Shown piece by piece: positions 3,801 through 47,003 of a stretch of 64,000 bases of DNA. Position 1 is the first letter of the stretch; each line of letters begins with the position of its first letter. The notes under the pieces were generated by a model, which saw nothing but the letters and a program-made list of their open reading frames with translations, ran no database searches and had not been told where the DNA came from. Made by a program: the position numbers and the translations under genes. The DNA is taken from NCBI RefSeq assembly GCF_027587175.1, contig NZ_JAPCID010000019.1:1-64000 (forward strand), in the 5' to 3' direction. Source of the stretch: Solirubrobacter deserti (lineage in GTDB: Bacteria > Actinomycetota > Thermoleophilia > Solirubrobacterales > Solirubrobacteraceae).

Positions 3801-4690
3801 TCACGGCGTGGCGACCCGCGACTGCGCGAGCGCCAGCAACGCCGCGGCGGCCGCGCCGAGACGCCGGGCGCTCGGCGCGGCGACGAACGTCTCGAACACC
3901 GGGGCGTGGTCGCGGATCGAGATCAGCGCGATGCCCTCGGGGTCGCGCACGAACGACGGCGCGAGGAACGCCACGGCCACGCCATGGCGGACGAACTCGA
4001 CCATCGTGCGCGTGTCGTTGATCTCGAGCGCGACGCGGCGTTCGAGGCCGGCGGCGGCGAACGCGCGGGCGGCCGCCACGCGCGTGGCCCAGTTCGACGG
4101 TCCGCCCGCGAACGTCTCGTCCGCGAGCGCGGCCCGCTCCACCTCGGGGGGGCCCGCGAGCGGATGCTCCGTGTGGACGCCGAGCGCCATCCCTCCCGCC
4201 GCAGCGGCGTGAGCGCGAGCCCGCTCGCACGCGGCGTCGGCAGCGCCAGGAACGCGAAGTCCAGCCGGCCTTCGCGGACCTGCTCGGCCATCTCGGCGGA
4301 ATAGCCCTGGCGGACGTGGAACTCCACGTCGGGATGCTCGGCCCGGAACGCGCCCAGCAGCCGGGCGAGGCTGAAGCCGACGAGCGCGTCGGCCTGCATG
4401 GTCCCGATGCGGACGAGCCCGCGCAGGCCGCCGTGGACGAGCTCGACCGCTTCCCGCGCGGCGTTCGCCGCCGCCAGCGTCGTCCGGGCCTCGGGCAGCA
4501 GCGCTCGGCCCGCGTCGGTGAGCGTCACCTGGTGCGTGGTGCGGTCGAAGAGCTGGGCGCCCAGCTCGCGCTCGAGGGCGCGCACCCCGGCTGAGACGGC
4601 GGACTGGACGACGTGCAGCCGCGCCGACGCGCGCGTGAAGCTTCCCTCCTCGGCGACGGCGACGAACGTGGCGAGGTGACGCAGCTCCAT
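3801..4690 (-). pseudogene. LysR-family regulator, disrupted by one apparent frameshift
   Basis: The start is ATG at 4690 (MELRHLATFVAVAEEGSFTR), giving a standard N-terminal winged helix (residues 1-60, LHVVQSAVSAGVRALEREL). The frame then runs into the LysR effector domain as far as LTPLRREG. Near 4187-4198 the correct continuation (MALGVHTEHPLAGPP...) lies in another frame and runs to a stop at 3801. Restoring one base would give about 296 residues, the normal LysR length. The break is at a G-rich run (GGGAGGGATGG on the coding strand), so it could be a sequencing error or a real mutation. The gene is divergent from the MFS transporter, which it probably regulates in the usual LysR manner. 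Confidence 0.8.
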
Positions 4691-8083: not shown

Positions 8084-8862
8084 GCGTTCCTCTGCTGCTG
8101 GTCGGCGGCGGCCGCATGGGCGAGGCGCTGCTCGGCGGGATGCTCGCCGCGGGCCGTCCCGCGCAGGACTTCGCCGTCGCCGAGGTGTCCGCGGCGCGCC
8201 GCGCGGCGCTGACCGCCACGTACCCGGGGGTGCAGGTCGTCGAGCAGCCCGTCGCCGCCGAGGGCGTCGTGCTCGCGACCAAGCCGAACGACATCGCCGC
8301 CGTCGCGGCCGCCGCCGCGCAGGCCGGCGCCCAGCGGCTGCTGTCGGTGGCCGCGGGCATCACCGCCGCCGCGATCGAGGCCGCCGCGCCATTGCCGGTC
8401 ATCCGCGCGATGCCGAACACGCCCGCGCTGGTCGGCGCCGGCGTGACCGCGATCGCCCCCGGCGCGCACGCCGGCGAGGACGACCTCGCGTGGGCGGAGG
8501 CGATCCTGGGCGCGGTCGGCGTCGTCGTGCGCGTGAAGGAGGCCCAGCTGGACGCCGTGACCGGCGTGTCCGGCTCCGGCCCCGCGTACGTCTTCCTCAT
8601 CGCCGAGGCGCTGAGCGACGCCGGTGTGCTCGCCGGCCTCCCCCGCGACCTCGCGAACACGCTCGCGTTCCAGACGCTGCTCGGCTCGGCCCAGCTGCTC
8701 ATCGACGGCGACAGCCCCGCGAACCTGCGCGCGGCCGTCACCTCCCCCGGCGGCACGACCGCCGCCGGCCTGCGCGAGCTCGAGCGCGGCGGCGTGCGCT
8801 CGGCGTTCCTGGAGGCCGTGATGGCCGCCACGGAGCGCTCGAGGGAGCTCGGCAGCCGCTAG
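8080..8862 (+). CDS. proC: Pyrroline-5-carboxylate reductase
   Basis: The 260-residue protein catalyses the last step of proline synthesis: NAD(P)H-dependent reduction of 1-pyrroline-5-carboxylate. The Rossmann motif VGGGRMGEALLGG is at the N-terminus. The family signatures IRAMPNTPALVGAG and VSGSGPAYVFLIAEAL are present, as is the C-terminal TSPGGTTAAGL region that ends the ProC signature. The GTG start at 8080 overlaps the thioesterase stop by 4 bp and places the nucleotide-binding loop correctly. It converges on the giant secreted gene, overlapping its stop by 4 bp (8859-8862). No other proline gene is nearby. Confidence 0.95.
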   Translation: MSVPLLLVGGGRMGEALLGGMLAAGRPAQDFAVAEVSAARRAALTATYPGVQVVEQPVAAEGVVLATKPNDIAAVAAAAAQAGAQRLLSVAAGITAAAIEAAAPLPVIRAMPNTPALVGAGVTAIAPGAHAGEDDLAWAEAILGAVGVVVRVKEAQLDAVTGVSGSGPAYVFLIAEALSDAGVLAGLPRDLANTLAFQTLLGSAQLLIDGDSPANLRAAVTSPGGTTAAGLRELERGGVRSAFLEAVMAATERSRELGSR

Positions 8863-11800
8863 CGACGGAGGGTCACGGCGCGCTTGCCGAGCACGGTCGT
8901 GCCCTGACGGAGCTCGAGTGTCGCCTTCACGCGGCCGCGCTTGAGCAGGGCGCGGCCCTTTGCGTTCAGCTTGACCGTCAGCTTGGCCGTCTTGCCGCTC
9001 GCGAGCGCGCCCGTGCGGCCCGTGCCGACCACGGAGCGCTTGACCATCAGCCGCGCGGTCACGGCCGCGCAGCCGGACGTCCCCGCGGGACACGCGAGCT
9101 GGGCCGTGACCGTTTGGCCGCGCACGATCGCGCGCTTGAGCGCCGTGCGTCCCGCCGCGACCGGCTTGGGGTCTGCATGCCGGGGCGCCGGAGCGACCAC
9201 CGGGTCGATCGTCACGACGAAGCGCACGCTCGCGGCGTTCCCGGCTCGGTCCGCGGCCGAGCACGTCACCGGCGTCGCGCCCACGGCGAAGACGGCGCCG
9301 GACGCGGGGGAGCAGCCCACGTCGACTGCCCCGTCGACCGTGTCCGTGGCGACCGGCACGGCGAACGCGCCCGTCCGGACGTCGGGCGCCGGACCGAACA
9401 CGGGCGGTGTCGTGTCCTGCACGCGCACCGTGAATCGACTCGTGACGCGCTTGCCGCCGGCGGTCGCGCTGCAGGTCACCTCCGTCGCGCCGAGCGCAAA
9501 GACGCTGCCGGAAGCCGGTGCACATGTGGTCCCGATCGGCGCGCCGACCCCGTCGGTGGCGGACGGCGGCGTGAACTCGACCGCGCGTCCCGCACCCGAG
9601 GCGGCCTCGGCGACCACGTCGGCAGCCGTGGCGATCACCGGCGCCGACGCATCCGCCCCGCGCACGGTCAGCGGCGTCCACGTCGTCTGTCCGTCGGCAG
9701 CTGCGGTCTTGAGCGTCGCCCACAGCTCCCCCGCGTTCGTGAAGCGGTGTTCGACGCGCGCGCCGGTCGCCACGCCACCGTCGGAGAACGCCCACGTGTG
9801 CGTCGCGTCCGCGGGGCCGTCCGCGATCAGCCGGAACGTCGAGGCCGTCCCGTCCACCCGCTCGGCGCGCGCCGCCACGCTCGGTGGGGCGCGGTCGGGC
9901 GTCGTCGTGAACGCCTCGACGTCCACGGGCTCGTCCTCGTGCACGTCGTCACCCGTGACGCGCAGCTTCCACGTCCCCGGGCCCGGGTTGGCGAGCACGA
10001 GCTTGTGCGACGTCGGCGTGCGCATGCTCACCACGCCGGGGGAGTCCTCGTCCACCACGGTCCCGCCCGGGCTCACGAAGGAGAGCGAGACCGTGCTGCC
10101 CGGCCAAGTGGCCTGCGCCTGCAGGGTGTCCGCGCCGGCGGCGGGCTGCAACGTGCCGACGTCGATCGTCTGGCCGAGGTCGAGCAGCACTCGCTGCGGC
10201 GCGATGCGCTCGTTCAGCGCGCGCTTGAGCGCGCTCGCGTAGGCCTCTTGGCCGCGCGCGTTCGGGTGGAAGGCGTACGAGATCGGGCCGTAGTTGCCCG
10301 GCGTGCTGAAGAACGGGTTGGTCGCCGAGTTGAAGCCCGTCTGCGGGTTGATCCGGCCGTTCTTGCACAGCGGGATCTGGTCGAAGTCCGTGCCCAACTC
10401 GACGTAGCTGATGCGCGAGGACCCGGTCGCCTTCACGGCCTTGTGAACCTCGGCGTTGAGCATGGTGATCACGGAGTCGATCGCCCGCCGGTCGCCGCGG
10501 GTCAGCGACGGCTCCCCGGGGCCGAGCAGCTCGCAGTCGCCGTCGACATCGGCGCCGTCGACGATCTTCGGGTAAGGCATCACGTACACATGGGCCTTCG
10601 GCGCGCGCCCGAGCAGCCGCTCGTACGCGGACACGAGCCGGTCGTGGAGATCGTCGTCGACGAGGTTCAGCGGTGACACACGCCGCTCCTGGTTGATCGC
10701 TTCGTCGAAGTCGTTGATCAACCGCTCGCTGCGGTACTGGCAGAAGATCTTCTTCGGGATGTTCGCCCAGTTCAGGCATGAGTCCGCCCACTCGACCACA
10801 TCGCGGATGTCGCTCGCGAGCGCGAACTGGTCGTCCCACACGTGCGCGAAATTGCGCAGCCAGGGCTCGCTGCCGAGCGCCTGAAGCGGCGCAGCGCTGC
10901 AGTCGATGACCGGCAGGATGCACGCGATCGCGATGTCCTTGAATCCGATGTCGTTGCCGCCCATCGACAGCGTGACGACATCGGTGAAGCGGTTGACGGA
11001 CTGCTGCTGCGGGCCCTCGTCCGGATTGCGGCGGTTATCCATCCAGATGCCGCGGCGATCGCGCCCGAGCACGCGTCCGCGGTCATCGGCGCGAGGTTGC
11101 GCTGGATGCCGTCGTCGGCCGCGACCAGCCGCCCGTAGCTGCCCACGGAGCGGTGGCACTTGTTGCCGCCGTCACCGTCGACGTCCCCGGCGGTCCCCGG
11201 GTCGAACGCGGGCACGCCCTCACCCGAGGAGAACGAGTCACCGAGCGAGACGTAGCGCGAGGGGCCGACGCCGATCAGGTGCTCGAAGCGGACATCCTCC
11301 GGGCCGTGCTCGGTCGCGATCATGTAGTAGCGACCGGCGTCGCGGTCCGTGTCCGGGATCGTGGCGGCCTCGGTGATGAAGCGGTCGCCGTAGCGCTCCC
11401 ACGTCCCAGAGTCCAGCCGCTGGCGCGTCCACAGCTGGTAGCCGGTGATCGGCGCGTCACCCGGCTCGACCGCAGGCCGGTCCCAGGTCACGACGATTCG
11501 CTCTCCACCACCGGACGGCTCGACCCGGTGGCGCACGTCGTACCGGGGCGGCGGCTCCGGCGGGCACGGCTCGCGTTTGACAAGCTCCGGGTCGAGGTCG
11601 ACGTCGCCGCCGGTGCGCTGCACGAACGAGCGGTCGAGAGCGAGCTCCAGCGGGCGCGGGTCGTCCTCGTGCCCCAGCCCGGCGAACACCGTGTAGCGCG
11701 CCCGGAACGTCTCCCCGGGTGCGAGCTCGGCGATCCGCTGCCTGCGGTCGGCCGAGGCGTAGAAGAAGTCGGCGTGTTCAGGGGGCTTGTCCGCCGCCTG

Positions 11801-14800
11801 CTCGAACATCTCGACCTCGAGGTTGTAGACCGGCGCGTCCTTGACATTGGTGATCTCGACCTCGAACCCGTACGGGCCCCAGCGGTGGGTGTAGCAGTCG
11901 AGCACGATCCGCGTCTTGAGCGCGGATGCCCCGTAGACGTCGAGCGGCGTCCGGGTGCCCGCGGTCATGAACACCGGGGCGTCGACCGGCGCCAGCGTCG
12001 AGGAGTAGGTCGCTCTCAGGTCGTAGCTTCCCTCGGTGTCCCCGCGCACGATCCACTCCACGGCGCGACTGCGCCCGCCCACGATTGCCCCGACCTCTTG
12101 GGTCGCGGATTGCGGTCGTGGTAGCGGCGCGAGTGATAGGCCCGGCGGGAGCTGCAGGCTCGCGACCCCCGGCTCGAACGTGAATCCCGGGTCGGCGAGG
12201 TTCTGCACGATCAGCTGGACGTCGAAGAACGCCTTGAGGAACGACGCCTTCATCGGCAAGACGAGCCAGTGGATGAACGGCTTGCCGGCGACGTGGGTGA
12301 GCGTCGGGAGGTACTGGCGGCCGTTGAGCACCCAGCAGCCGATGAGCGTGTCGGCCTCCGGGCACGGGTTGGCGCCACCGCCACCACCACCGCCGCCACC
12401 GCCGCAGTTGGACGCGCAGACGATCTGCCCGTCCCAGTACCACAGATGCACGGTCTCGCTCGCGGGCGGGTCTTCCTCCTCGGCGCCGACCGGGTCGAAC
12501 CAGAGGTGCACCTTCGCCTCGTACACGTGCGTGTTGGCGGGGTCGTCGACGTCGATGCCGGCGTCCAGGATCTCCGCGAGCGTCATGCGGCGATGCTCGA
12601 GCGTCGTGGCGCCGAGCTGGCCCTGCTCGAGATCGACCGCCACCTCGCCGCGGCCATCGGTAACGGTGACGGGCGCGGTCCGGGGCCGGTAGCCCGGCGC
12701 ATAGAGATACAGCGTGTGGGTGCCGTCGGGGAGGCCGCGCAGGCGCGCGACGCCATCGGCGCCGCTCGTCGCCGACGTACGGCTGCCGTCCCCCGCGATG
12801 TAGGTGACAGTGGCGTCGCCCACCGGCATCCCGGACCCGGTCACGCGCACGGCCAGCGCTCGGTCGGCCGGCGGCGGGTCGGTGACCGTCACCCGCGCCG
12901 TGTCCGTCGCGGTCGACGTCCCGATCGTCGTGGTCAGCGTGACCGTGTAGGTGCCCGGCGCGCGCGAAGGGGTGCGTGGCCGCGCGGCCAGTCGCGCTCG
13001 AGCCATCGCCGAAGTCCCACTCGTAGCGAGTGATCAGCGCCGCGGGACGCGAGCCGCCGCCGTCGAACGCGACCGCCTCGCCCGCCTGCGCCTGCTGGTC
13101 GTCGCCCGCTGCCGCGGTCAACGGCTCCGACAGCGCCGTGACGACGCGCACGGTCCTGGTCGTGGTGCGCTCGCCGTCGTTGACCGAGAGTCGGACGAGG
13201 AAGCTGCCCGCGGTCGCGTACGTGTGCGTGAGCGGCGTCTGCGGAAGCGTGCCGGTGCGCTCCGGGCTGCCGTCGCCGAACGACACCCGATACGTGAGCG
13301 CATCGTCGTCGGCGTCCTCACCCGTGATCGTGGCGGTGACCGCGAACGGCGCGCTGCCCTCGTCGCGATCGAGTGTCAGCACGGCCGTCGGCGGGCGGTT
13401 GGGCGGCGCGGTGACCGTGACGAGTGTGCTGCGGCGCGCCCCGTTGCCGGCGCCGTCGTCCACGTCGGCGAGCACGCGGTAGGCGCCCGGCCGCGTGAAC
13501 GCGTGCTCGAGCTCCAGGGGCGTGTGCGGGCTGGCCCGCGTGCCGGTCACGACTGGGCTGCCGTCACCGAAGTCGAGGCGATAGCTCAGTTCGCGCCCGC
13601 TCTCGCTGCGCGCATCGAGCCGGATGCGGCTGGTGACCGGCGCCTCGCCCGCCGCCGGCGCGGCCTCCAGCTCGAGCTGCGGCGCGGCCGTGTTGACGGT
13701 GACGGGCACGGGCGGCAGCGACGTTTGGTGGGCCGATCCGTATGCGTCGCGCCAACGGACCGTCACGGCCAGCGTGCGATCGCCATTGAGGTGCGGCGCG
13801 AGCTGCATCGCCGTCGCCCATTGACCGCTTGCGTTCGCGGCCGTGATGGGGAAGCAGACCGCCGTCGTCACGCACGGGGCGACCTCGGTGACCGGCACGT
13901 CGGCGGGCGTGAACGTGAACGCCGCCGAGCGCGAGAGCACGTCGGTCGCCACGGGCCGCAGCACGCGCCCCGGCGGATCTCGACGAACGCCGATCCGGCC
14001 GGCGACGGTCGTAGCTAGCCCTTCCGGGCCGGTGGCGACCAGTGTGTACGCGTAGCCGCCGTCGGGCGCCGCAGCGCCGTCCTCGTTGCGCCCGTCCCAG
14101 CTGAACGAGTGACAGCCCTGGGTGCGGTCGTCGCTGCGCACGGTGCGGACGGGCTTCCCGTCACGAGTGATCGCCAGGCGCATGTCCGCAGGCGCGTCGA
14201 TGCAGTACGACGGGCCGCCCGTGTCCTCGCCGCCGTCACCGTCGGGCGTGAAGTAGCGGTCGCTGGAGACGTTGCTGATCTGTACCGCGCGCGTCACTAC
14301 GACTCGCCGCGTCGCCATCGCATACGAGTGCGACGCCCCGAAATCGTCCTGGTAATACACGTGGCCCCACAGCCAGGTGGCGCCCGTGGGTGTCGTCGCG
14401 GTGTTCCATTCGAGTCCACGCGTGCCGTCGAAGTCGGGGACTCCGAGCGACCCGATGCCCTGCCAGCTACAGCGGAGGTCGGCGTAGCAGAGATAGAGCG
14501 AGCCGCCGGTGATCGTGCGGCCCTCTGCGGGGGCGATCTTGACGCGCACGCTGCCCGTGACGACAGCGTCGGCGGCGGGCGCGAGCAGCGTGGCGACCGG
14601 GCGCGTGTCCACGCCGAACCTCCCGCTCGCGATGACGGGTTCGCCGATCTCACCCGCGGCCTCGACCGAGTACCGGTAGACGCCGTCCGCGACCCGCTTG
14701 CCGTCCTCGTCGCGACCGTCCCAGGTGAAGCTGTGACCGCCCTCGTCGCGGGCCACGTCGGTCTCCAACCGGCGCACGAGTCCGCCGGCGTCGTCACGCA

Positions 14801-16871
14801 CGCGGATGGTGACGCGCGCCGCGGCCGTGATCACGTAGCTGACGCCGACCGCGTCCTCGTGCCCGTCGTCGTCGGGCGAGAAGTACCGCTCCGGTGACTG
14901 CAGCGTCAGCGTCACCGCGCGCCGCACTTGCACGCGCCGCACCGCCAACGGGTACGAGTGGCCGGCGCCGAACGCGTCCGTGTAGTACGCGTAGCCCCAT
15001 AGCCCTTTCTCACCCGTCGGGAACGCGACCGTGTCGAAGGTGACGCTCCGGACGCCGAACGCGTCCGCCTCCCCCAACGACCCGATCCCGTACCAGGCGC
15101 ACTGCCCGGCGTAGTAGCACCCGTACAGCGTCCCGCCGGTCAATGCGCGCCCCGGATGCGGCGCCACGCGGACCGTCACCTGCCCGTCGACCACCGCACC
15201 GTCCTCCGGCGCGACGATCCGGGCCACTGGCGCCGTGTCCACGCCCACACGCAGGCTGGCGGATTGCGGCTCTCCGATCGCGCCGACGGCCCGCACGGTG
15301 TAGGTGTAGACGCCGTCGGGGACGCGCTCGCCGTCATCGTTGCGGCCGTCCCAGGAGACGGAATGCCCGCCCTCGGCGACGGCGACCGCGTCGGCGATCC
15401 GGCGCACCGGCTCGCCTGCGGCGTCGCTGACGTTGATCGTCACGGTCGCTGCGGCGGTGACCGCATAACTGAAGCCGACGGCGTCCTCGTGCCCATCGCC
15501 GTCGGGCGAGAAGTACCGCTCCGGTGACTGCAGCGTCAGCGCGACCGCGCGCCGCACGTCGACCCGCCGCACCGTCAGCGGGTAGGAGTGGCCGGCGCCG
15601 AACGCGTCCGTGTAGTACGCGTAGCCCCACAGCCCTTTCTCACCCGTCGGCAACGATGCCGCGTTCCAGGTGAGTCCGCGGACGCCGAGCGCGTCCGCTT
15701 CGCCCAGCGACCCGATCCCGTACCACGCGCACTGCCCGACGTAGTAGCACCCGTACAGCGTTCCGCCGGTCAGCGACCGCCCGGACCGAGGCGCCACCCG
15801 GATCATGACCTCCCCGTCGACCACCGCGCCCTCGTCCGGCGCCACGATCTCCGCCACCGGAGCCGTGTCCACGCCGACCCGGCCGCTGGCGCTCGCAGGC
15901 GCTCCGACGGCCCCGACGACGTCCACGGTGTACGAGTACTCGCCGTCGGGCACCGTCGCTCCGCTATCGTCGCGCCCGTCCCAGCTGACGCTCGAGCCGC
16001 CCTCGGCGACGAAGACATCGCTCACGAGCCGGCGCACGACGCTTCCTGCCGCATTGCGAACGCGCACGTTCGCCGTTCCGGGCGCCGTGGTGACGTAGCC
16101 GATGCCGTACGCGTCCTCGTGCCCGTCGCCGTCGGGCGAGAAGAACCGCGCCGCGCTGTTGACGCTGACGGTGACCGGCCGTTGGACGACAACGTGACGA
16201 GCATCCACCGGGAAGCTGTGTGAGGTGCCGAATTGGTCCGCGTAGTACACGTAGCCCCACAACCACGTGTCGCCGGTCGAGGAGGAGCGCGTGTCCCACT
16301 CGAGGGTGTCGTCGGCGTCCAGCGAGCCCAGCGACTGCCACGCGCACTGTGACGCCCAATAGCAGCGGTACAGGTTGCCGCCAGAGAGCGACCGACCGGC
16401 GTGCGGGGTGACGACCACGCGGACCGTTCCCGTCACGGTGGCGTCGGCCGCGGGAGCCGTGATCGCCGCGACGGGTGCGGTGTCGATGGCGATCCGCCGC
16501 TCCGCGCTCCCCGTCTCCCCCGCCTCGTTGACCGCCGTGATCCGGTAGCGATAGACGCCGTCCTGGGCAACAGCGGTGCTCGCGTCGCGACGGCCGTCCC
16601 ACGCGAACGACGCCGACCCTTCCGTCGGCACGTCTGTCTGCACCCGGCGGACGACCTCGCCGCTCGCATCGACCACGACGATCGACACGCGGGAGCGCTC
16701 GGAGACCTGGTAGGAGAGCCCGAGGACGTCCTCGTGCTGGTTGCCGTCCGGGGAGAAGGATCGCTCGGGCGTCTGCAGCGTCACGGTCGGCGGAGCCGCG
16801 CTCGCCGGTGCGGCGAACGCGAGCAGACACAGCAGCAGTGCCGCCAGGGACAGCACTGAGCGCTGAGCCAT
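8859..16871 (-). CDS. Giant secreted multi-module SGNH hydrolase, two apparent frameshifts
   Basis: One protein of about 2,670 residues is spread over three frames: 16871 to about 12955, then about 12955 to about 11070, then to 8859. The total length, 8,013 bp, is divisible by three, so the two indels compensate. In order, the modules are a signal peptide (1-26), five FlgD-Ig-like repeats with FSPDG motifs, three PKD-like domains, a carboxypeptidase-regulatory-like domain, a Gly-rich run, a large beta region and a fibronectin-like segment. An SGNH esterase domain follows (block I GDSFSSGEG near 11250, block III GGND near 10960, HPNARGQ near 10260), then a PKD-like unit, two HYR domains and a beta-sandwich end. 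The first indel sits at a GGG run (plus-strand CCC, 12954-12956), the second near 11050-11090 inside the esterase domain. Either these are sequencing errors or the enzyme is inactive. It probably acts on esters of polymers outside the cell. Confidence 0.8.
13960..16790 (-). repeat. Five in-frame FlgD-Ig-like repeat units, about 615-630 bp each
   Basis: FSPDG-type motifs recur at about 16757, 16142, 15512, 14882 and 14252 (coding on minus). Each unit carries FSPDG, WDGR, VDTAPVA, a GR(S/A)LTGG-like turn with a Cys pair, and a WGYxYY segment. Units 3 and 4 are nearly identical at DNA level around 14870-15020 and 15500-15650, which points to recent duplication or gene conversion. Confidence 0.8.
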
Positions 16872-17088
16872 TCGCGCGACCCTAGTGGAGAACCCGCGCC
16901 ACGTTCAATCAAGCCTGACCGATGGTGGGGGTCGGCGTGCTCTCGGTCGAACGCGACGGCCGAGCGGTACGCCAAGACGTCGCTCCGGTTTCGACCGGCG
17001 GTCCAGGGTCCCCGGACCGCCTGCCGGATAGGTTCGGGCCGCCGCTCCAGCGAGCGGCGTCGGGTCAACCTTCTCCGGAGCATTCCCT
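16872..17088. promoter_or_regulatory. Divergent promoter region with an 8-bp hairpin
   Basis: This gap separates the giant secreted gene (minus) from the amidase gene (plus). It contains GGCGGTCC (16997-17004) and GGACCGCC (17014-17021), a hairpin with a 9-nt loop in the likely 5' leader of the amidase. A GGAG at 17077-17080 is the amidase ribosome site. No clear promoter box is visible. Confidence 0.4.
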
Positions 17089-19884
17089 TTGCGCAGACTT
17101 CCTCTCGCGTCGGCCGCCGCATGCGTGCTGCTGGCCGCATCGGCGTCCACGGCCTACGCCTGGACGACCGTCACGAACGCCAACCGCGACATCTGGAACG
17201 TCAATGACGCCGCGGACCCCGGGATGGACACGGGCTCCATCCACAACACGGGCACGAACTCGCTGCAGGGCTACGGCGGCCTGCGCGTGCAGGTGCCGGG
17301 CAGCCCGCGCATGAACGGCGTGCTGCTGCGGGGGTTCGACCTGACGGCCGACAGCGCCACGCAGTACACGAGCAAGAAGGCCGTCAAGCTCGGCGGCGTC
17401 GCGATCAAGCGCTCGATCGCGTTCAACACCGAGGAGGCGTACGCGCGCTTCTTGGACACGTTCACCAACACGACGGGCGCGCCGATCACGATCGAGACCG
17501 CGTTCGGTGGCCAGCTGGGCTACAACACCGGCACCAACCAGAGCGCGATCGCGGCGACCTCGAACGGCGACACCGCGCTCACCGCCGCCGACAAGTGGGC
17601 CGTCCACTACTCGCCTTCGGCGGGCGCCGGCTCGGCCACCGTCAACGGCACGAGCGCGACCGTCCCCGGCACGTTCGACCGCACCGGCAACTTCCTGCGC
17701 GGCCCGTTCGAGTTCCCGCTCGAGACCACGGGCGATCACGCCAACCACGTCGGCTACGTCAACACGCTCACGATCGCGCCGGGCGCGACCGAGGCGCTCG
17801 TCCGGTACGTCGTGACCGGCCTGTCGGAGACGCGCGCGCCCACCGGCGGCGGCAGCACGCCCGCCGCGGGTTCGCAGGTCGCGGCCGTCACGGCCAAGGC
17901 CACGGCGCTCGCCGCGGCGCCGCCGCTCGGTGACCTCGCCCCGGCCGAGGCGTGCGCGCTGGTCAACGTCGACATCTCCGCGATCAACTGCGGCAGCGCG
18001 CCGGCCTACGCGCTCGGCCCGGTCGCCGGGGACAAGGCGATCGGCGCGACCACGAAGTCGCCCTACAACGTCGTCGGCAAGACGATCACGCAGCTGATCG
18101 CGGACCTGCAGGCCGGCAAGACCACATCCGAGCAGATCACCCAGGCCTACCTGGACCGGATCGCGGCCTACGACCGCGGGCCGTTCGGCCTGAACTCGAT
18201 GATCACGCTCGCTCCGGACGCGCTCGCGCAGGCCAAGGCCGCCGACGCCGCCCGCAAGGCCGGCGACACGCGTCCGCTGCTCGGCATCCCGATCGTCGCC
18301 AAGGACCTGATGTCCACCAAGGACATGCCCACCACGGGTGCCTCGCGCGTGTTCGAGGGCTTCCAGTCGACGACGGACGCGTGGCAGGTGATCAAGATCC
18401 GCGAGGCGGGCGCGATCGTGATGGGCAAGGCCAACCTGGCCGAGTACGCCAACGACGGCCACTTCTCACCGTCCGCGTACGGCCAGGTGTGGAACGCGTA
18501 CAACCCGTCCAAGTCGCCGATCGGCTCCTCCGGCGGCACGGCCACGGCGGTCGCCTCCTCGTTCGCCGCCGCGGGCTTCGGCACGCAGACCGGTGACTCG
18601 CTGTGGGGCCCGTCGTCCGGCGCGTCGCTGGTGTCGCTGCGCGGCACCGACGGCATGCAGTCGAGCGACGGGACGATGCCGCTGACCTACATCCAGGACT
18701 ACGTCGGCTGGATCGCCCAGTCGACCGCCGACCTCGCGCTGCTGCTCAACGCCACCGCGCGCAGCGACGCGCCCAACGACCCGCTCGACGACGTGGCCAA
18801 CGGCAAGCGTCCCGCGGACTGGACCGCCGGGCTGGACACGAACGCGCTCCAGGGCAAGGTCATCGGCGTGCCGGACGGCACCGCGTGGGAGGACCCGTTC
18901 GGCACCGAGGGCACCGAGGCCGCGCTGCGCGACGCGTTCAAGTACTTCGTGCAGGCCGGCGCCACGATCACGACGATGCCGGCGGCGCCCAACGGCCCGT
19001 CCAACCCGCCCGGCGACCGCGGCTACGAGGGCTGGCGCCAGTGGCTGCTCGCGCACCCGAACGCGCCGTACACGGACGCCGCGCAGATCCTGCGCAGCCC
19101 GCTGCGCCTGCCGCAGTTCCGCAACACGACGCCCTACACCGGCACCGGCGCGATGACCGTCGAGCAGACCAAGGCGTGGGAGGCCCAGCGGGCGGAGTAC
19201 CGGGCGCGGCTGGCCACGTGGATGGACGAGAGCGGCGTCGACGCCGTCGTCCTCCCCGGCCTACTCAGCGACATCCACCTCAACGACTCGATCCAGCCGT
19301 CGTTCGGCCGGCGCGATCCGCAGTCGTCGGCGGCGGGCGTCCCCACGGTGATCTTCCCGGCCGGCGTCAACGACCACGGCCAGCCGATCAACCTGCAGCT
19401 CCAGGGCAAGGCGTTCCAGGACCTCGAGCTGCTGAGCTTCGCGCACGCGTTCGAGGCCAAGGCGAACGGGCGGCTCGCGCCTCCGGTCGACGTCACGCCG
19501 GTGCTGCCGTTCGCGACCACGACGCCGGGCACGGTCGGCGGCACGGTCCCGGCCACGCTCAGCCTGACGCTGGCGGGCACGCCGACCTTCGGCGCGTTCA
19601 CGCCGGGTGTCGAGCAGGAGTACACGGCGGGCGCGACCGCCAGTGTCATCTCCACCGCGGGTGAGGCGAAGCTCAGCGTGTCCGAGCCGGGGCACCTGGC
19701 CAACGGCGCGTTCACGCTGCCGGAGCCGCTGCGCGTCGAGTTCAGCAAGGCGAGCTGGACCGCGCCGGTGACCAACGACCGCGTCGACATCGCGTTCAAG
19801 CAGCTGATCAAGCGGACCGATCCGCTGCGGACCGGGACCTACAGCAAGACGCTGACGTTCACGTTGTCCACGACGACTCCGTAG
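17089..19884 (+). CDS. Secreted amidase-signature enzyme with shared C-terminal module
   Basis: The 931-residue protein starts with TTG at 17089, supported by GGAG eight bases upstream. It has a signal peptide (1-24, cleavage near AYA), then an unrecognised beta-rich domain (about 25-260), then an amidase-signature domain (about 340-800). The catalytic Lys405 (VAKDL), cis-Ser480 (GSSGG) and nucleophile Ser504 (TGDSLW) are spaced 75 and 24 residues apart, as in characterised members. It should hydrolyse an amide or ester outside the cytoplasm. Residues 814-931 are the module also found in the proteins at 27004, 44488 and 47004. The 3' end overlaps the convergent gene at 19859 by 26 bp. The substrate is unknown. 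Confidence 0.85.
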   Translation: MRRLPLASAAACVLLAASASTAYAWTTVTNANRDIWNVNDAADPGMDTGSIHNTGTNSLQGYGGLRVQVPGSPRMNGVLLRGFDLTADSATQYTSKKAVKLGGVAIKRSIAFNTEEAYARFLDTFTNTTGAPITIETAFGGQLGYNTGTNQSAIAATSNGDTALTAADKWAVHYSPSAGAGSATVNGTSATVPGTFDRTGNFLRGPFEFPLETTGDHANHVGYVNTLTIAPGATEALVRYVVTGLSETRAPTGGGSTPAAGSQVAAVTAKATALAAAPPLGDLAPAEACALVNVDISAINCGSAPAYALGPVAGDKAIGATTKSPYNVVGKTITQLIADLQAGKTTSEQITQAYLDRIAAYDRGPFGLNSMITLAPDALAQAKAADAARKAGDTRPLLGIPIVAKDLMSTKDMPTTGASRVFEGFQSTTDAWQVIKIREAGAIVMGKANLAEYANDGHFSPSAYGQVWNAYNPSKSPIGSSGGTATAVASSFAAAGFGTQTGDSLWGPSSGASLVSLRGTDGMQSSDGTMPLTYIQDYVGWIAQSTADLALLLNATARSDAPNDPLDDVANGKRPADWTAGLDTNALQGKVIGVPDGTAWEDPFGTEGTEAALRDAFKYFVQAGATITTMPAAPNGPSNPPGDRGYEGWRQWLLAHPNAPYTDAAQILRSPLRLPQFRNTTPYTGTGAMTVEQTKAWEAQRAEYRARLATWMDESGVDAVVLPGLLSDIHLNDSIQPSFGRRDPQSSAAGVPTVIFPAGVNDHGQPINLQLQGKAFQDLELLSFAHAFEAKANGRLAPPVDVTPVLPFATTTPGTVGGTVPATLSLTLAGTPTFGAFTPGVEQEYTAGATASVISTAGEAKLSVSEPGHLANGAFTLPEPLRVEFSKASWTAPVTNDRVDIAFKQLIKRTDPLRTGTYSKTLTFTLSTTTP

Positions 19885-27003: not shown

Positions 27004-28407
27004 CTACGGCTGAGTGGTGCTCAGCGTGAAGGTGACGGTCTTGCTGTAGCTGCCCGTGCGCAGCGGGTCGGTGCTCTTGATCAGCTGCTTGAACGTGACG
27101 TCGACGTTCTCGTTGCTCGTCGGGCCGTTCCAGGTGGACTTGCTGAACTCGACCTTCAGCGGCTCGGCGAGGCTGAACGCGCCGTTGGTCAAGTGACCCG
27201 GCTCGCTGACGGCGAGCGTCGCGTCACCGGCGGTCGAGGTGACCGTCGCGCTCGTCGACGCGGTGTACTCCTTGGTCGGAGCGCCCGCGATGAACGGCTC
27301 GAACGTGGCGCCCGTGCCGAGCGTGAGCGCGAGCGTCGCCGGGACCGTGCCGCCGACCGTGCCCGGCTCGTCGCGGACCTTGCCGAACTTGATCGTGTTC
27401 ATCAGGTTGAAGGCGACCTTCGACGAGTTGAACGGGTCCAGCGACAGGTCGTACTCCCAGTGGTAGTAGTCGACGTCGGCCGCGGCCTCGAAGATGCGCT
27501 TCCAGTCCGTGACGTCGTTCGGGCCGCCGGCGTCGGTGACACGCGACATGTCCGTGGACGGGATCGTCTGCGGGTTCTTGGTCGGGTCCGAGCCCTTCAC
27601 GTGCAGCATCGAGATCCGCTTGGAGTGCTTGCGCAGGAACGCGACGGCCGCGTCCTGGTCGTACGACAGGCCCTCGAGCAGCCAGTGCACGTCGATCTCG
27701 AACGTGACCAGCGACGGGTCGGTGTTGAGGATCACGACCTCGAGCGCGGACACCGTCTCCTTGACGCCGTCACCGTTCGTGTCGTACTGGAGCTTGGTGG
27801 AGAGCTCCTTGTCGTGGTTGTGGCCGTAAACCCACAGGTCCTGCGCGCGGGCCTTGGCGCCCAGGCGGTTCATGACCGCGCCCATGTTGACGGCGCCCTC
27901 GACCGTGTCCATGTTCGTGCCCGCCGGCCAGCCGCCCGAGCCGACGTACTTGAGGCCCAGCGCCTTGGCCTGGGCCAGGCGCGCGTCCCAGCTGCCCTCG
28001 TCCACCGCGCCGTGGTCGGCGACCGCGTGCAGCCCATGCTCCTCGTACTTGGCCCGGTACTCGGCGGCCGTCCAGCCGAACGTGCCGTTGAAGTTCTCGA
28101 ACGCCGTGAAGCCGTTGGCCGACATCTGCGCGAACACGTTCTGGACCGCGGCCTGCATCTGCGCCGGCGTGTTGGGCGTGCCGCCGGGCGGGAAGTAGTT
28201 GCCGCCGCCGAAGTCGATCGCCCCGAACACCGGGACGAGGAAGTTGTAGAGCTGGAAGGAGATCTTCTCCTTCGGGATCATGCCCGTCGGCTCCGTCTGG
28301 GCACCGGCGGACGGCGCGACGATGGCGGCCGCGGCCAGGCCCGCGACCGCGGCGGCCCCGAACCCCGAACGCACGCGACTGGCGATCGCGTTGCGGTTTG
28401 ACCTCAC
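27004..28407 (-). CDS. Exported xylose-isomerase-like TIM-barrel protein with shared C-terminal module
   Basis: GTG at 28407 is chosen because AGGAGGAG lies directly upstream; this gives about 467 residues. A twin-arginine-poor but clear signal peptide ends near GAQTEP. The body (about 45-340) resembles the AP-endonuclease 2/xylose isomerase-like TIM barrel of sugar phosphate isomerases/epimerases (KISFQLYNF, then DHGAVDEGSWDARLAQAKALGLKYVG and later FEIDVHWLLEG, MLHVKGSD, DYYHWEYD). The expected acidic and His metal ligands are visible. Residues 348-466 are the C-terminal module ending TFTLSTTQP shared with three other proteins here. An exported member of this isomerase fold is unusual; its substrate is unknown. 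Confidence 0.8.
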   Translation of the reverse strand: MRSNRNAIASRVRSGFGAAAVAGLAAAAIVAPSAGAQTEPTGMIPKEKISFQLYNFLVPVFGAIDFGGGNYFPPGGTPNTPAQMQAAVQNVFAQMSANGFTAFENFNGTFGWTAAEYRAKYEEHGLHAVADHGAVDEGSWDARLAQAKALGLKYVGSGGWPAGTNMDTVEGAVNMGAVMNRLGAKARAQDLWVYGHNHDKELSTKLQYDTNGDGVKETVSALEVVILNTDPSLVTFEIDVHWLLEGLSYDQDAAVAFLRKHSKRISMLHVKGSDPTKNPQTIPSTDMSRVTDAGGPNDVTDWKRIFEAAADVDYYHWEYDLSLDPFNSSKVAFNLMNTIKFGKVRDEPGTVGGTVPATLALTLGTGATFEPFIAGAPTKEYTASTSATVTSTAGDATLAVSEPGHLTNGAFSLAEPLKVEFSKSTWNGPTSNENVDVTFKQLIKSTDPLRTGSYSKTVTFTLSTTQP

Positions 28408-44487: not shown

Positions 44488-47003
44488 TTACGGGGCCGTC
44501 GTCGACAGCGTGAACGTCAGCGTCTTCGAGTAGGTCCCGGTGCGCAGCGCGTCCGTCGCGCCGATGGCCTGCTTGAACACCACGTCGGACGTCCCGTTGG
44601 ACACGGGCCCGTCCCACCCGGACGGCGTGAGCTCGACCCGCAGCGGCTGCGGGAGCGAGAACGCGCCGTTGGTCATGTGCCCGGGCTCAGAGACGCTCAG
44701 CGCCGCATTGCCCGCGGTGCTGATGATCGTCGCCTTCGTGGTCGCCGTGTATTCCTTCGGCACGCCCGGCAGGAACGGGTCGAACGTCGGCGCCGCGCCC
44801 AGCGAGAGCGAGAGCGTCGCCGGCACCGTCCCGCCGACCGTGCCCGGGACGTTCGTGCCGACCGTGACCACGACCCGCTGGTAGCGGGTGAGCGCCGGGG
44901 TCCCAGCGTCCTTGACCTCGAGGATCGCGTGGATGGTGTCGCCGGGCTTCGCGTCGGCGGGGACGACGAAGCTCGCGTTGCGCGTGTCGGCACCGTCCAT
45001 CGCGATCCGGCCCGCGTAGGTGTCGGCCTCGTAGTACTGCCACCACTTGAACGTCACCGCGTCGCCGTCCGGGTCGACCGCCGCGCCGTTCAGCCCGACG
45101 CGCTGGCCGGGGGCGAAGACCATGTCGGGATGCGGCGTGGTCACGGTCGGCGGGTGGTTGGCGTCCTCGTAGGACTTGACCATCCAGTCGGCGCGCGCGG
45201 CCCAGTCGTTCTGGATCACGTCGACCCAGCGGGTCTGCGGGTACGTCGTGTTCCAGTGGCTGGAGATGGTCGTGCCGGCCGGGACCGCCTCGCTCAGCGG
45301 CTCGGTCAGCGTCACGCCCGAGCCGGCGCCGCGCACGCCGGTGTTCATCGGGTGCGCCGCGGTCAGCGCGGGCGCGAACGTGATCCCCGTACCCGGCTTG
45401 CTCTGGTCGCGCACCGGAGCGTTGTTGGCGTGCGCCAGCGCGAGCGCCGGCGTCACGTCCACGCCGGTGCCGGTCGCGCCCGGCGTGCCGACGGCGGAGA
45501 TCGTGACCGTCTCGGCGTTGCCGCCGCTGTCGACCGTCAGCGTGTCACCGGCGGCGAGGTTGTTCACCGACGCCACCTTGAGGTTGGTCGCCCCCGCCAC
45601 GTGCGCGCCGGCCAGTGCCGTCGCGACCCCGGCGGTGCCGACCTCGGTCACCGTCGGCGTCTCTTGGCCCGCGCCCGTGTTCAGCAGCAGCTTCTGGCCG
45701 ACGACGAACCCGGCGACGCTCGGAACCTTGATGTTCGTCGCCCCGGCCGCGGCGCCCGTGAGCAGGGTCGTGTTCGCTCCCTGCGCCGTGCCAACCGTGG
45801 CCACCGTCCGCGTCTGCGTCCCGATCGTGATCGGCAGGCCGGCACCGATCGGGTTCGTGCTGGCGACGTGCACGGTCGTCGCCCCCGCCGCGGCGGGCAG
45901 CACGGCGGTCGTCGTGGCCGCGGCGTACGGGTTGTAGTCGCGCGTGTTGGGCAGGTCCTCGACCCGGTACGGGTTGGTCGGGCTCTGGGTGAAGCGCCCG
46001 CCCCAGCCGCCCCAGGTCGGGTGGTCGAGGTTGCGCAGGCCCGTGTCCATCAGGTGCAGATAGGCCGGCGTGTCGCCTTCGGAGATGAAGTCGTTGAGCT
46101 GCGCCGGGTTGGGGTTGAGCCCCTGGTTGTGCTCGGGGTCACCCGGGATCTGCCGCCCGTCGCCCCACGTGTAGTACTGCGCCATCAACGGCCCGTGGCC
46201 GGTGAGGATGTTCTCGCGCATCCACGGGCCCTGCAGGTACGGCCGCAGCTCGGCCGGCACGCGCGTGCGCCACTGGTAGGCGAAGCTCCAGAACTGGTCG
46301 GCGTTGTAGATCACGCGGATCTTCGGCCAGTTCGGCAGCACGTAGGCGTTGTAGGTGATGTCCTGGTCGAGCACCGTGTAGATCACGGCCTTGCGTGAGA
46401 CCTTCTCGTAGATCGCGTCCCACGCCGGCGTGTGCTTGTACTGGTCCTCGATCGACTTCAGCGCCCGCGCGACCGTGTTCGTCCCGCCCCAGATCTGCAG
46501 GTAGACCGGCGACGGGTCCTCGTCGAGCAGCACCTGCTTGATCAGGTCCGAGCCGGGCGTGTCCTTGGCCATCTCGCCCTCGAACTCGATGTTGCCGATC
46601 CGCACCAGGCTCTTCAGGTGCTCCGGGGTGGGATAGCCGGGGGCGTGGGTCTTGAGCGTGTCGTAGCTCTCCGCGTACTTGTCGATCAGCTCCTGGATCC
46701 AGGTCTCGTCCGGGTTCGTGTTCCCGGGGATCAGGCTCTTGACCCAGCGCAGGTCAGTGCGCGTCCCGTAGCGCGGGTTGGTCGGCGAGGTGAACAGCGT
46801 GCCTTTGCCGTCCCCCTTCCAGTGCCACTGCGAGCTGGAGTAGACGAGGCCGACGGGTTCCATCTCGTTCGCGTACAGGAACCAGCGGATCATCGTGTCG
46901 ATGTCGTCGACCTCACCGTCCGTCGTGAGGATCGTGCGCGGCTTGGCGGCCTGCGCCGGCGCGGCGAACAGCAGCGCGGCGAACAGCACCAACAGGAGTC
47001 GTC

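What the first reader, a model, noticed from the sequence alone, without database searches (positions are those of the whole stretch)
8859..16871. A giant secreted SGNH hydrolase gene with two compensating frameshifts
Three frames encode consecutive parts of one coherent protein: FlgD-like repeats and PKD, then the carboxypeptidase-like to block I part, then SGNH block III to the C-terminus. The first junction is at a CCC run (12954-12956), the second near 11050-11090, within the esterase domain. The whole length is a multiple of three. Either the assembly has two indels or a 2,670-residue protein is broken; programmed frameshifting is a less likely third option.
Basis: seen in the sequence. 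Interest (0 to 1): 0.6.

Follow-up and report, generated by a model that had tools for sequence, protein, structure and literature searches.

The report
Broken giant secreted esterase gene
A soil bacterium (Solirubrobacter deserti or the same strain under another name) carries an 8-kb gene for a giant secreted esterase whose reading frame is interrupted twice; related species have intact giant relatives, so this is an ordinary broken gene, by real mutation or by sequencing error, and not a new translation mechanism.

Summary
Window 8859-16871 (- strand) is one ancestral 2,670-codon gene read in two frames, not three: the first and third pieces share a frame, and the middle 1.9 kb lies in another. 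A codon-usage HMM places the breaks at 12959/12960 and 11050/11051. Giant intact proteins (3,101-3,161 aa) in three sister Solirubrobacter species align without gaps across both breaks. Reading the pieces together lifts the GDSL match from 23.1 bits (below Pfam's cut-off) to 37.6 (above it). The second break separates the catalytic Ser/Gly blocks from the Asn/His blocks, so no single frame encodes an esterase. Programmed frameshifting and separate genes are effectively excluded by the relatives. Real decay versus shared sequencing error stays open. A second public assembly of the strain (NZ_QPKJ02) has identical breaks, but it shares contig ends with the window's assembly, so it is not independent. 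Frame lesions are no commoner here than in sister genomes and two fall in one gene, which favours recent inactivation (about 0.55). A third lesion 7 kb away lies beside base errors, which keeps sequencing error at about 0.4. Interest is low.

The parts
12957..16871 (-). 5' piece (frame 1 of the gene): signal-peptide-like N-terminus (MAQRSVLSLAALLLCLLAFAAPASA), FlgD_ig-type Ig repeats in ~630-bp (210-aa) units, PKD domains; 1,305 aa up to break 1
   Evidence: ORF; FlgD_ig 4.1e-59, PKD_4 6.4e-29; 630-bp repeat spacing; HMM frame
12951..12960 (-). frame break 1, inside a PKD domain, at a CCC (+) / GGG (-) run
11051..12955 (-). middle piece (other frame): end of PKD, CarboxypepD_reg domain, unassigned region, SGNH block I (YVSLGDSFSSGEG) and block II (ACSGA); 635 aa
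11040..11060 (-). frame break 2, inside the SGNH domain between block II and block III
8859..11051 (-). 3' piece (same frame as the 5' piece): SGNH block III (SMGGNDIGF) to the His block (FHPNARGQ), PKD, two HYR domains, basic C-terminal Ig-like domain; stop codon 8859-8861
8092..8859 (+). flank: proC (pyrroline-5-carboxylate reductase by sequence motifs), convergent with the giant gene; 72-84% identical orthologues in four of five sister genomes
17125..19881 (+). flank: secreted amidase-family protein (PF01425); in sisters G001 and G003 only about 575 bp separate it from proC

Best explanation
This is one ancestral gene for a giant secreted protein: a long stalk of FlgD-like Ig and PKD domains, a carboxypeptidase-regulatory-like domain, an SGNH (GDSL) esterase, and HYR/Ig-like domains at the C-terminus. 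It has been interrupted by two small length changes of opposite effect on the frame. Most likely these are real, fairly recent mutations and the gene is an inactivated copy. Mechanism, intact form (inferred): Sec export, with the Ig/PKD stalk carrying the esterase at or near the cell surface to cleave ester bonds of an unknown lipid or polysaccharide substrate. Mechanism, present form: translation would give a 1,697-residue secreted stalk with a nonsense tail (inferred from the ORF). The esterase cannot form, because the Ser and Gly blocks lie in one frame and the Asn and His blocks in another (shown). That the piece set is one broken gene is near certain (0.95); that the breaks are in the organism's DNA is the 0.55 claim.
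For: Codon HMM: strong coding signal in three abutting pieces with no stop or start at the joints. Intact giant relatives in sister genomes G001, G003 and G004 run through both joints without gaps, 37-39% identical over about 860 columns. Reading through restores the GDSL family: 37.6 bits against a cut-off of 32.9, versus 23.1 for the 3' piece alone. Solved SGNH enzymes 4HYQ and 5MAL align across break 2. For real decay: the second assembly has identical bases at both joints. Frame lesions in this genome (8 raw flags in 1.44 Mb, about six after removing one low-complexity false alarm) are no denser than in sister genomes G001 (2 in 0.4 Mb) and G002 (6 in 0.4 Mb, at least two of them in a repeat tract) by the same scan. 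Two independent random errors in one gene would be unusual (my estimate about 2% for six lesions). The joints are not unusual in GC or folding energy and are 7 kb from the nearest assembly disagreement. The gene is dispensable in the genus: sisters G001 and G003 have only about 575 bp, containing another small gene, between the same neighbours.
Against: No nonsense change and undiminished codon bias over 2,670 codons, so decay must be recent or absent. The assembly is a draft of a 72%-GC genome; the type-strain assembly was built from Illumina reads with SOAPdenovo (PMC10722151). A LysR gene 7 kb from break 2 has a one-base difference from three sister orthologues 40 bp from a cluster of base errors in the window's assembly, and the second assembly shares that length difference, so shared errors are possible.
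Confidence: 0.55

Rival explanations
1. The two frame changes are sequencing or assembly errors shared by both public assemblies; the organism has an intact 2,670-codon gene and makes the full secreted esterase.
For: Codon bias is intact and there are no nonsense changes over 8 kb. The two assemblies are not independent: contigs C35, C96 and C33 start or end with the same 8-base offset from QPKJ02 contigs. The window's assembly has demonstrable base errors at 4069-4151, where the other assembly agrees with sisters at most of the differing sites, with a one-base length difference at 4192 common to both assemblies. Three of the frame lesions found lie within 9 kb of each other.
Against: No disagreement between assemblies near either joint; the joints lack long homopolymers and unusual folding; lesions are no denser than in sister genomes; single-base indels are rare in Illumina consensus (general knowledge).
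Confidence: 0.4
2. Programmed ribosomal frameshifting: the ribosome shifts one way at break 1 and the other way at break 2 and makes the full protein.
For: The frames are exactly compensating and both flanking pieces are well conserved in codon use.
Against: Relatives encode the corresponding stretch in one frame with no shift; two shifts in opposite directions in one gene would be needed; no heptameric slippery sequence is seen at either joint in the printed sequence.
Confidence: 0.02
3. Three separate genes.
For: ORFs with possible start codons exist for the middle (13006) and 3' (11159) pieces.
Against: The joints fall inside a PKD domain and inside the SGNH domain; the downstream ORF starts encode out-of-frame residues without signal peptides; relatives have one ORF.
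Confidence: 0.03

Closest known systems
Giant multidomain SGNH proteins of sister Solirubrobacter genomes (G001 3,101 aa; G003 3,161 aa; G004 3,109 aa)
   Same: PKD - CarboxypepD_reg - conserved region - SGNH order, 37-39% identity, gapless at both joints
   Different: Sisters are intact; the one whose domains were scanned (G001) has Laminin_G_3 and fn3 in place of FlgD_ig repeats at the N-terminus; the two of these loci where it was seen (G001, G003) lie beside a glutamine-synthetase-like gene, not proC; these three are 57-82% identical to each other over the searched stretch
Streptomyces SGNH lipases: phospholipase A1 (4HYQ), S. rimosus lipase (5MAL), S. scabies esterase (1ESC)
   Same: SGNH blocks I, II and III align (4HYQ E 6e-14, 5MAL 5e-8, 1ESC 0.008)
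   Different: Those are small single-domain enzymes (234-306 aa) encoded in one frame
Frameshifted pseudogenes in draft bacterial genomes
   Same: Coding bias kept, small length change, intact relatives elsewhere
   Different: Two lesions in one 8-kb gene; reality not confirmed by independent reads

Membership tests
SGNH/GDSL hydrolase (PF13472, Streptomyces lipase type) | Block I GDS with catalytic Ser | tested here: met
   GDSFSSGEG in the middle piece; aligns with Ser10 of 5MAL (Ser10 among the active-site residues studied in S. rimosus lipase, PMC10779480)
SGNH/GDSL hydrolase (PF13472, Streptomyces lipase type) | Block II Gly | tested here: met
   ACSGA just before break 2, aligned with ACSGA of 4HYQ/5MAL
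SGNH/GDSL hydrolase (PF13472, Streptomyces lipase type) | Block III Asn (GxND) | tested here: met
   GGNDIGF in the 3' piece; aligns with Asn82 of 5MAL
SGNH/GDSL hydrolase (PF13472, Streptomyces lipase type) | C-terminal catalytic His | tested here: met
   FHPNARGQEAYASAL in the 3' piece, aligned with FHPNADGQE of the G005 SGNH protein
SGNH/GDSL hydrolase (PF13472, Streptomyces lipase type) | All blocks in one open reading frame | tested here: not met
   Break 2 divides the domain; score above cut-off only when read through
Programmed frameshift gene | Frame change conserved in relatives | tested here: not met
   Three relatives are in one frame
Pseudogene | Lesion confirmed in independent reads | not testable with these tools
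   Second assembly identical but not independent
Pseudogene | Intact homologues exist in relatives | tested here: met

The most novel reading that the evidence does not exclude
The giant esterase is made in full by two opposite recoding events, a double programmed frameshift that joins the catalytic domain only during translation.
Probability: 0.02. Interest if true: 0.85.

Novelty: new member of a known kind. Interest (0 to 1): 0.12.

Why it matters
Little beyond annotation. It documents a genus-level family of giant (over 2,600 residues) secreted SGNH proteins in Solirubrobacter with exchangeable N-terminal domains, and shows that automated annotation will cut this copy in three. It also shows that agreement between two assemblies of one strain is not independent confirmation when they share contig structure.

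Tried and rejected
Orthologue in other species for a selection (dN/dS) test: none close enough; the SGNH half has only weak matches in the order apart from the second assembly, and the middle part is at best about 42% identical. Viral contigs: no relative. First lesion list contained overlapping ordinary genes at C35:69386, C96:114356, C56:66722 and C56:76012, rejected on inspection. The C29:116903 candidate also looked like an overlapping gene pair and dropped out of the stricter scan. The C11:16569-16834 pair is a low-complexity repeat. The scan recovers only 16 of 40 planted single-base deletions, so its rates are lower bounds. NAD kinase lesion as proof of error: rejected, because the broken copy is an accessory paralogue and a second NAD-kinase homologue (C50) matches one found in all sisters. 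Local hairpins or extreme GC at the joints: not unusual. No structure prediction was run: the sequence evidence for SGNH was sufficient.

Full report
WHAT IS THERE. The reverse strand of 8859-16871 holds three abutting coding pieces. The open frames are 16904-11778 and 11171-8859 (the same frame) and 13033-10772 (the other frame). A seven-state Viterbi codon-usage model trained on this genome places the pieces at 16856-12960, 12959-11051 and 11050-8862. So two frames are used, not three; the shifts cancel, which is why the total (8,013 bases) is a multiple of three. GC3 is 0.90, 0.92 and 0.93 in the pieces. The joined protein is 2,670 residues.

DOMAINS. The 5' piece starts with a signal-peptide-like sequence and carries FlgD_ig (5 stretches) and PKD domains, with DNA repeats of 630-bp period. 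The middle piece has a CarboxypepD_reg domain and, at its end, SGNH block I (GDSFSSGEG) and block II (ACSGA). The 3' piece starts just before SGNH block III (GGND), contains the His block (FHPNARGQ), then PKD and two HYR domains. Alone, the 3' piece scores 23.1 bits for PF13472 (cut-off 32.9); read through, the SGNH domain scores 37.6 and matches the solved Streptomyces enzymes 4HYQ, 5MAL and 1ESC. In S. rimosus lipase Ser10, Gly54, Asn82 and His216 are among the active-site residues studied by mutagenesis (PMC10779480, abstract). Break 2 divides Ser and Gly from Asn and His.

RELATIVES. Sister genomes G001, G003 and G004 contain giant single-frame proteins (3,101, 3,161 and 3,109 aa) with the same PKD - CarboxypepD_reg - SGNH order. 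Over about 860 aligned columns they are 37-39% identical and show no gap at either joint. A G001 protein used as query hits the window's assembly in three pieces whose query coordinates continue each other (25-190, 189-372, 375-570) while the frame changes at 12951-12955. This excludes separate genes and a conserved programmed shift. The S. deserti copy is not a positional orthologue: in G001 and G003 the gap between proC and the amidase is only 572-581 bp and encodes a small protein that resembles the PPOX flavin family by eye. The giant gene is therefore an accessory insertion at a variable locus.

REAL OR ERROR. The window is contig C35 of a 129-contig draft. It matches NZ_QPKJ02000002.1, Solirubrobacter sp. 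CPCC 204708, with 7 mismatches and no gaps over 21 kb. CPCC 204708 is the type strain of Solirubrobacter deserti; the assembly described with it was built from Illumina HiSeq reads with SOAPdenovo (PMC10722151). Whether the window's own assembly is that one is not known. Both joints are identical in the two assemblies. They are not independent: over 123 kb they differ only in three small clusters (4069-4151, 86715-86898, 95571-95623), and three contigs show the same 8-base offset from QPKJ02 contigs.

A lesion scan of 1.44 Mb of this genome flags 8 places. On inspection these are the giant gene (two), a LysR gene, an accessory NAD kinase, an ABC ATPase, a PhoX-like (by eye) protein, and one low-complexity false alarm counted twice. 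The same scan flags 2 in 0.4 Mb of G001 and 6 in 0.4 Mb of G002, at least two of those in a repeat tract. The window's assembly is thus not unusually rich in frame lesions. Sensitivity to planted deletions is 16 of 40. Two random errors in one gene would be unusual (my estimate about 2% for six lesions over 1.35 Mb of coding sequence), whereas a decaying gene collects more than one. Against this, the LysR lesion lies 40 bp from base errors where the other assembly agrees with sister orthologues at most sites, and the length difference there is shared by both assemblies. Shared errors are therefore possible in this contig. I put real decay at 0.55 and error at 0.4.

FUNCTION. Inferred from architecture: secretion, a long Ig/PKD stalk, and an ester hydrolase of Streptomyces-lipase type. 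The species is reported positive for esterase C4, esterase lipase C8 and lipase C14 (PMC10722151), but nothing ties this to the present gene. As written in the sequence, the catalytic domain cannot be made.

VERDICT. Interest is low.

Noticed in passing
window 19516-19881 (+), C-terminus of the amidase at 17125-19881; also about 27007-27372 and 44491-44874 (-): The last ~120 residues of the amidase recur at about 59-79% identity in dozens of unrelated ORFs of every Solirubrobacter genome searched (36-93 matches per genome at E <= 1e-30, including whole-amidase matches). In 1.44 Mb of this genome all 14 motif matches (LRTGxYxKTLTFTL...) end within a few residues of a stop codon, and neither Pfam nor NCBIfam has a model that matches. 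It looks like an undescribed genus-wide C-terminal sorting or anchoring domain.
   Followed up: partly
window 3804-4690 (-): A LysR-family regulator gene is frameshifted at about 4192 relative to orthologues in three sister genomes (83-84% identical over the N-terminal part); same length difference in both assemblies.
   Followed up: yes
window 4069-4151: Seven base differences from the other assembly of the strain, clustered in 83 bp; the other assembly agrees with sister orthologues at most of them, so the window's sequence likely has errors here.
   Followed up: yes
L158 (G000:C33:82970-83799, -): An accessory NAD kinase gene is frameshifted in both assemblies; G003 and G004 have a 79% identical homologue with a longer open frame, and a second NAD-kinase homologue in this genome is unbroken.
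   Followed up: partly
window 8860-16990 versus L115, L116 and L117: The proC-amidase interval is variable in the genus: a small PPOX-like gene in G001 and G003, that gene plus a trypsin-like protease in G004, the giant SGNH gene here.
   Followed up: partly
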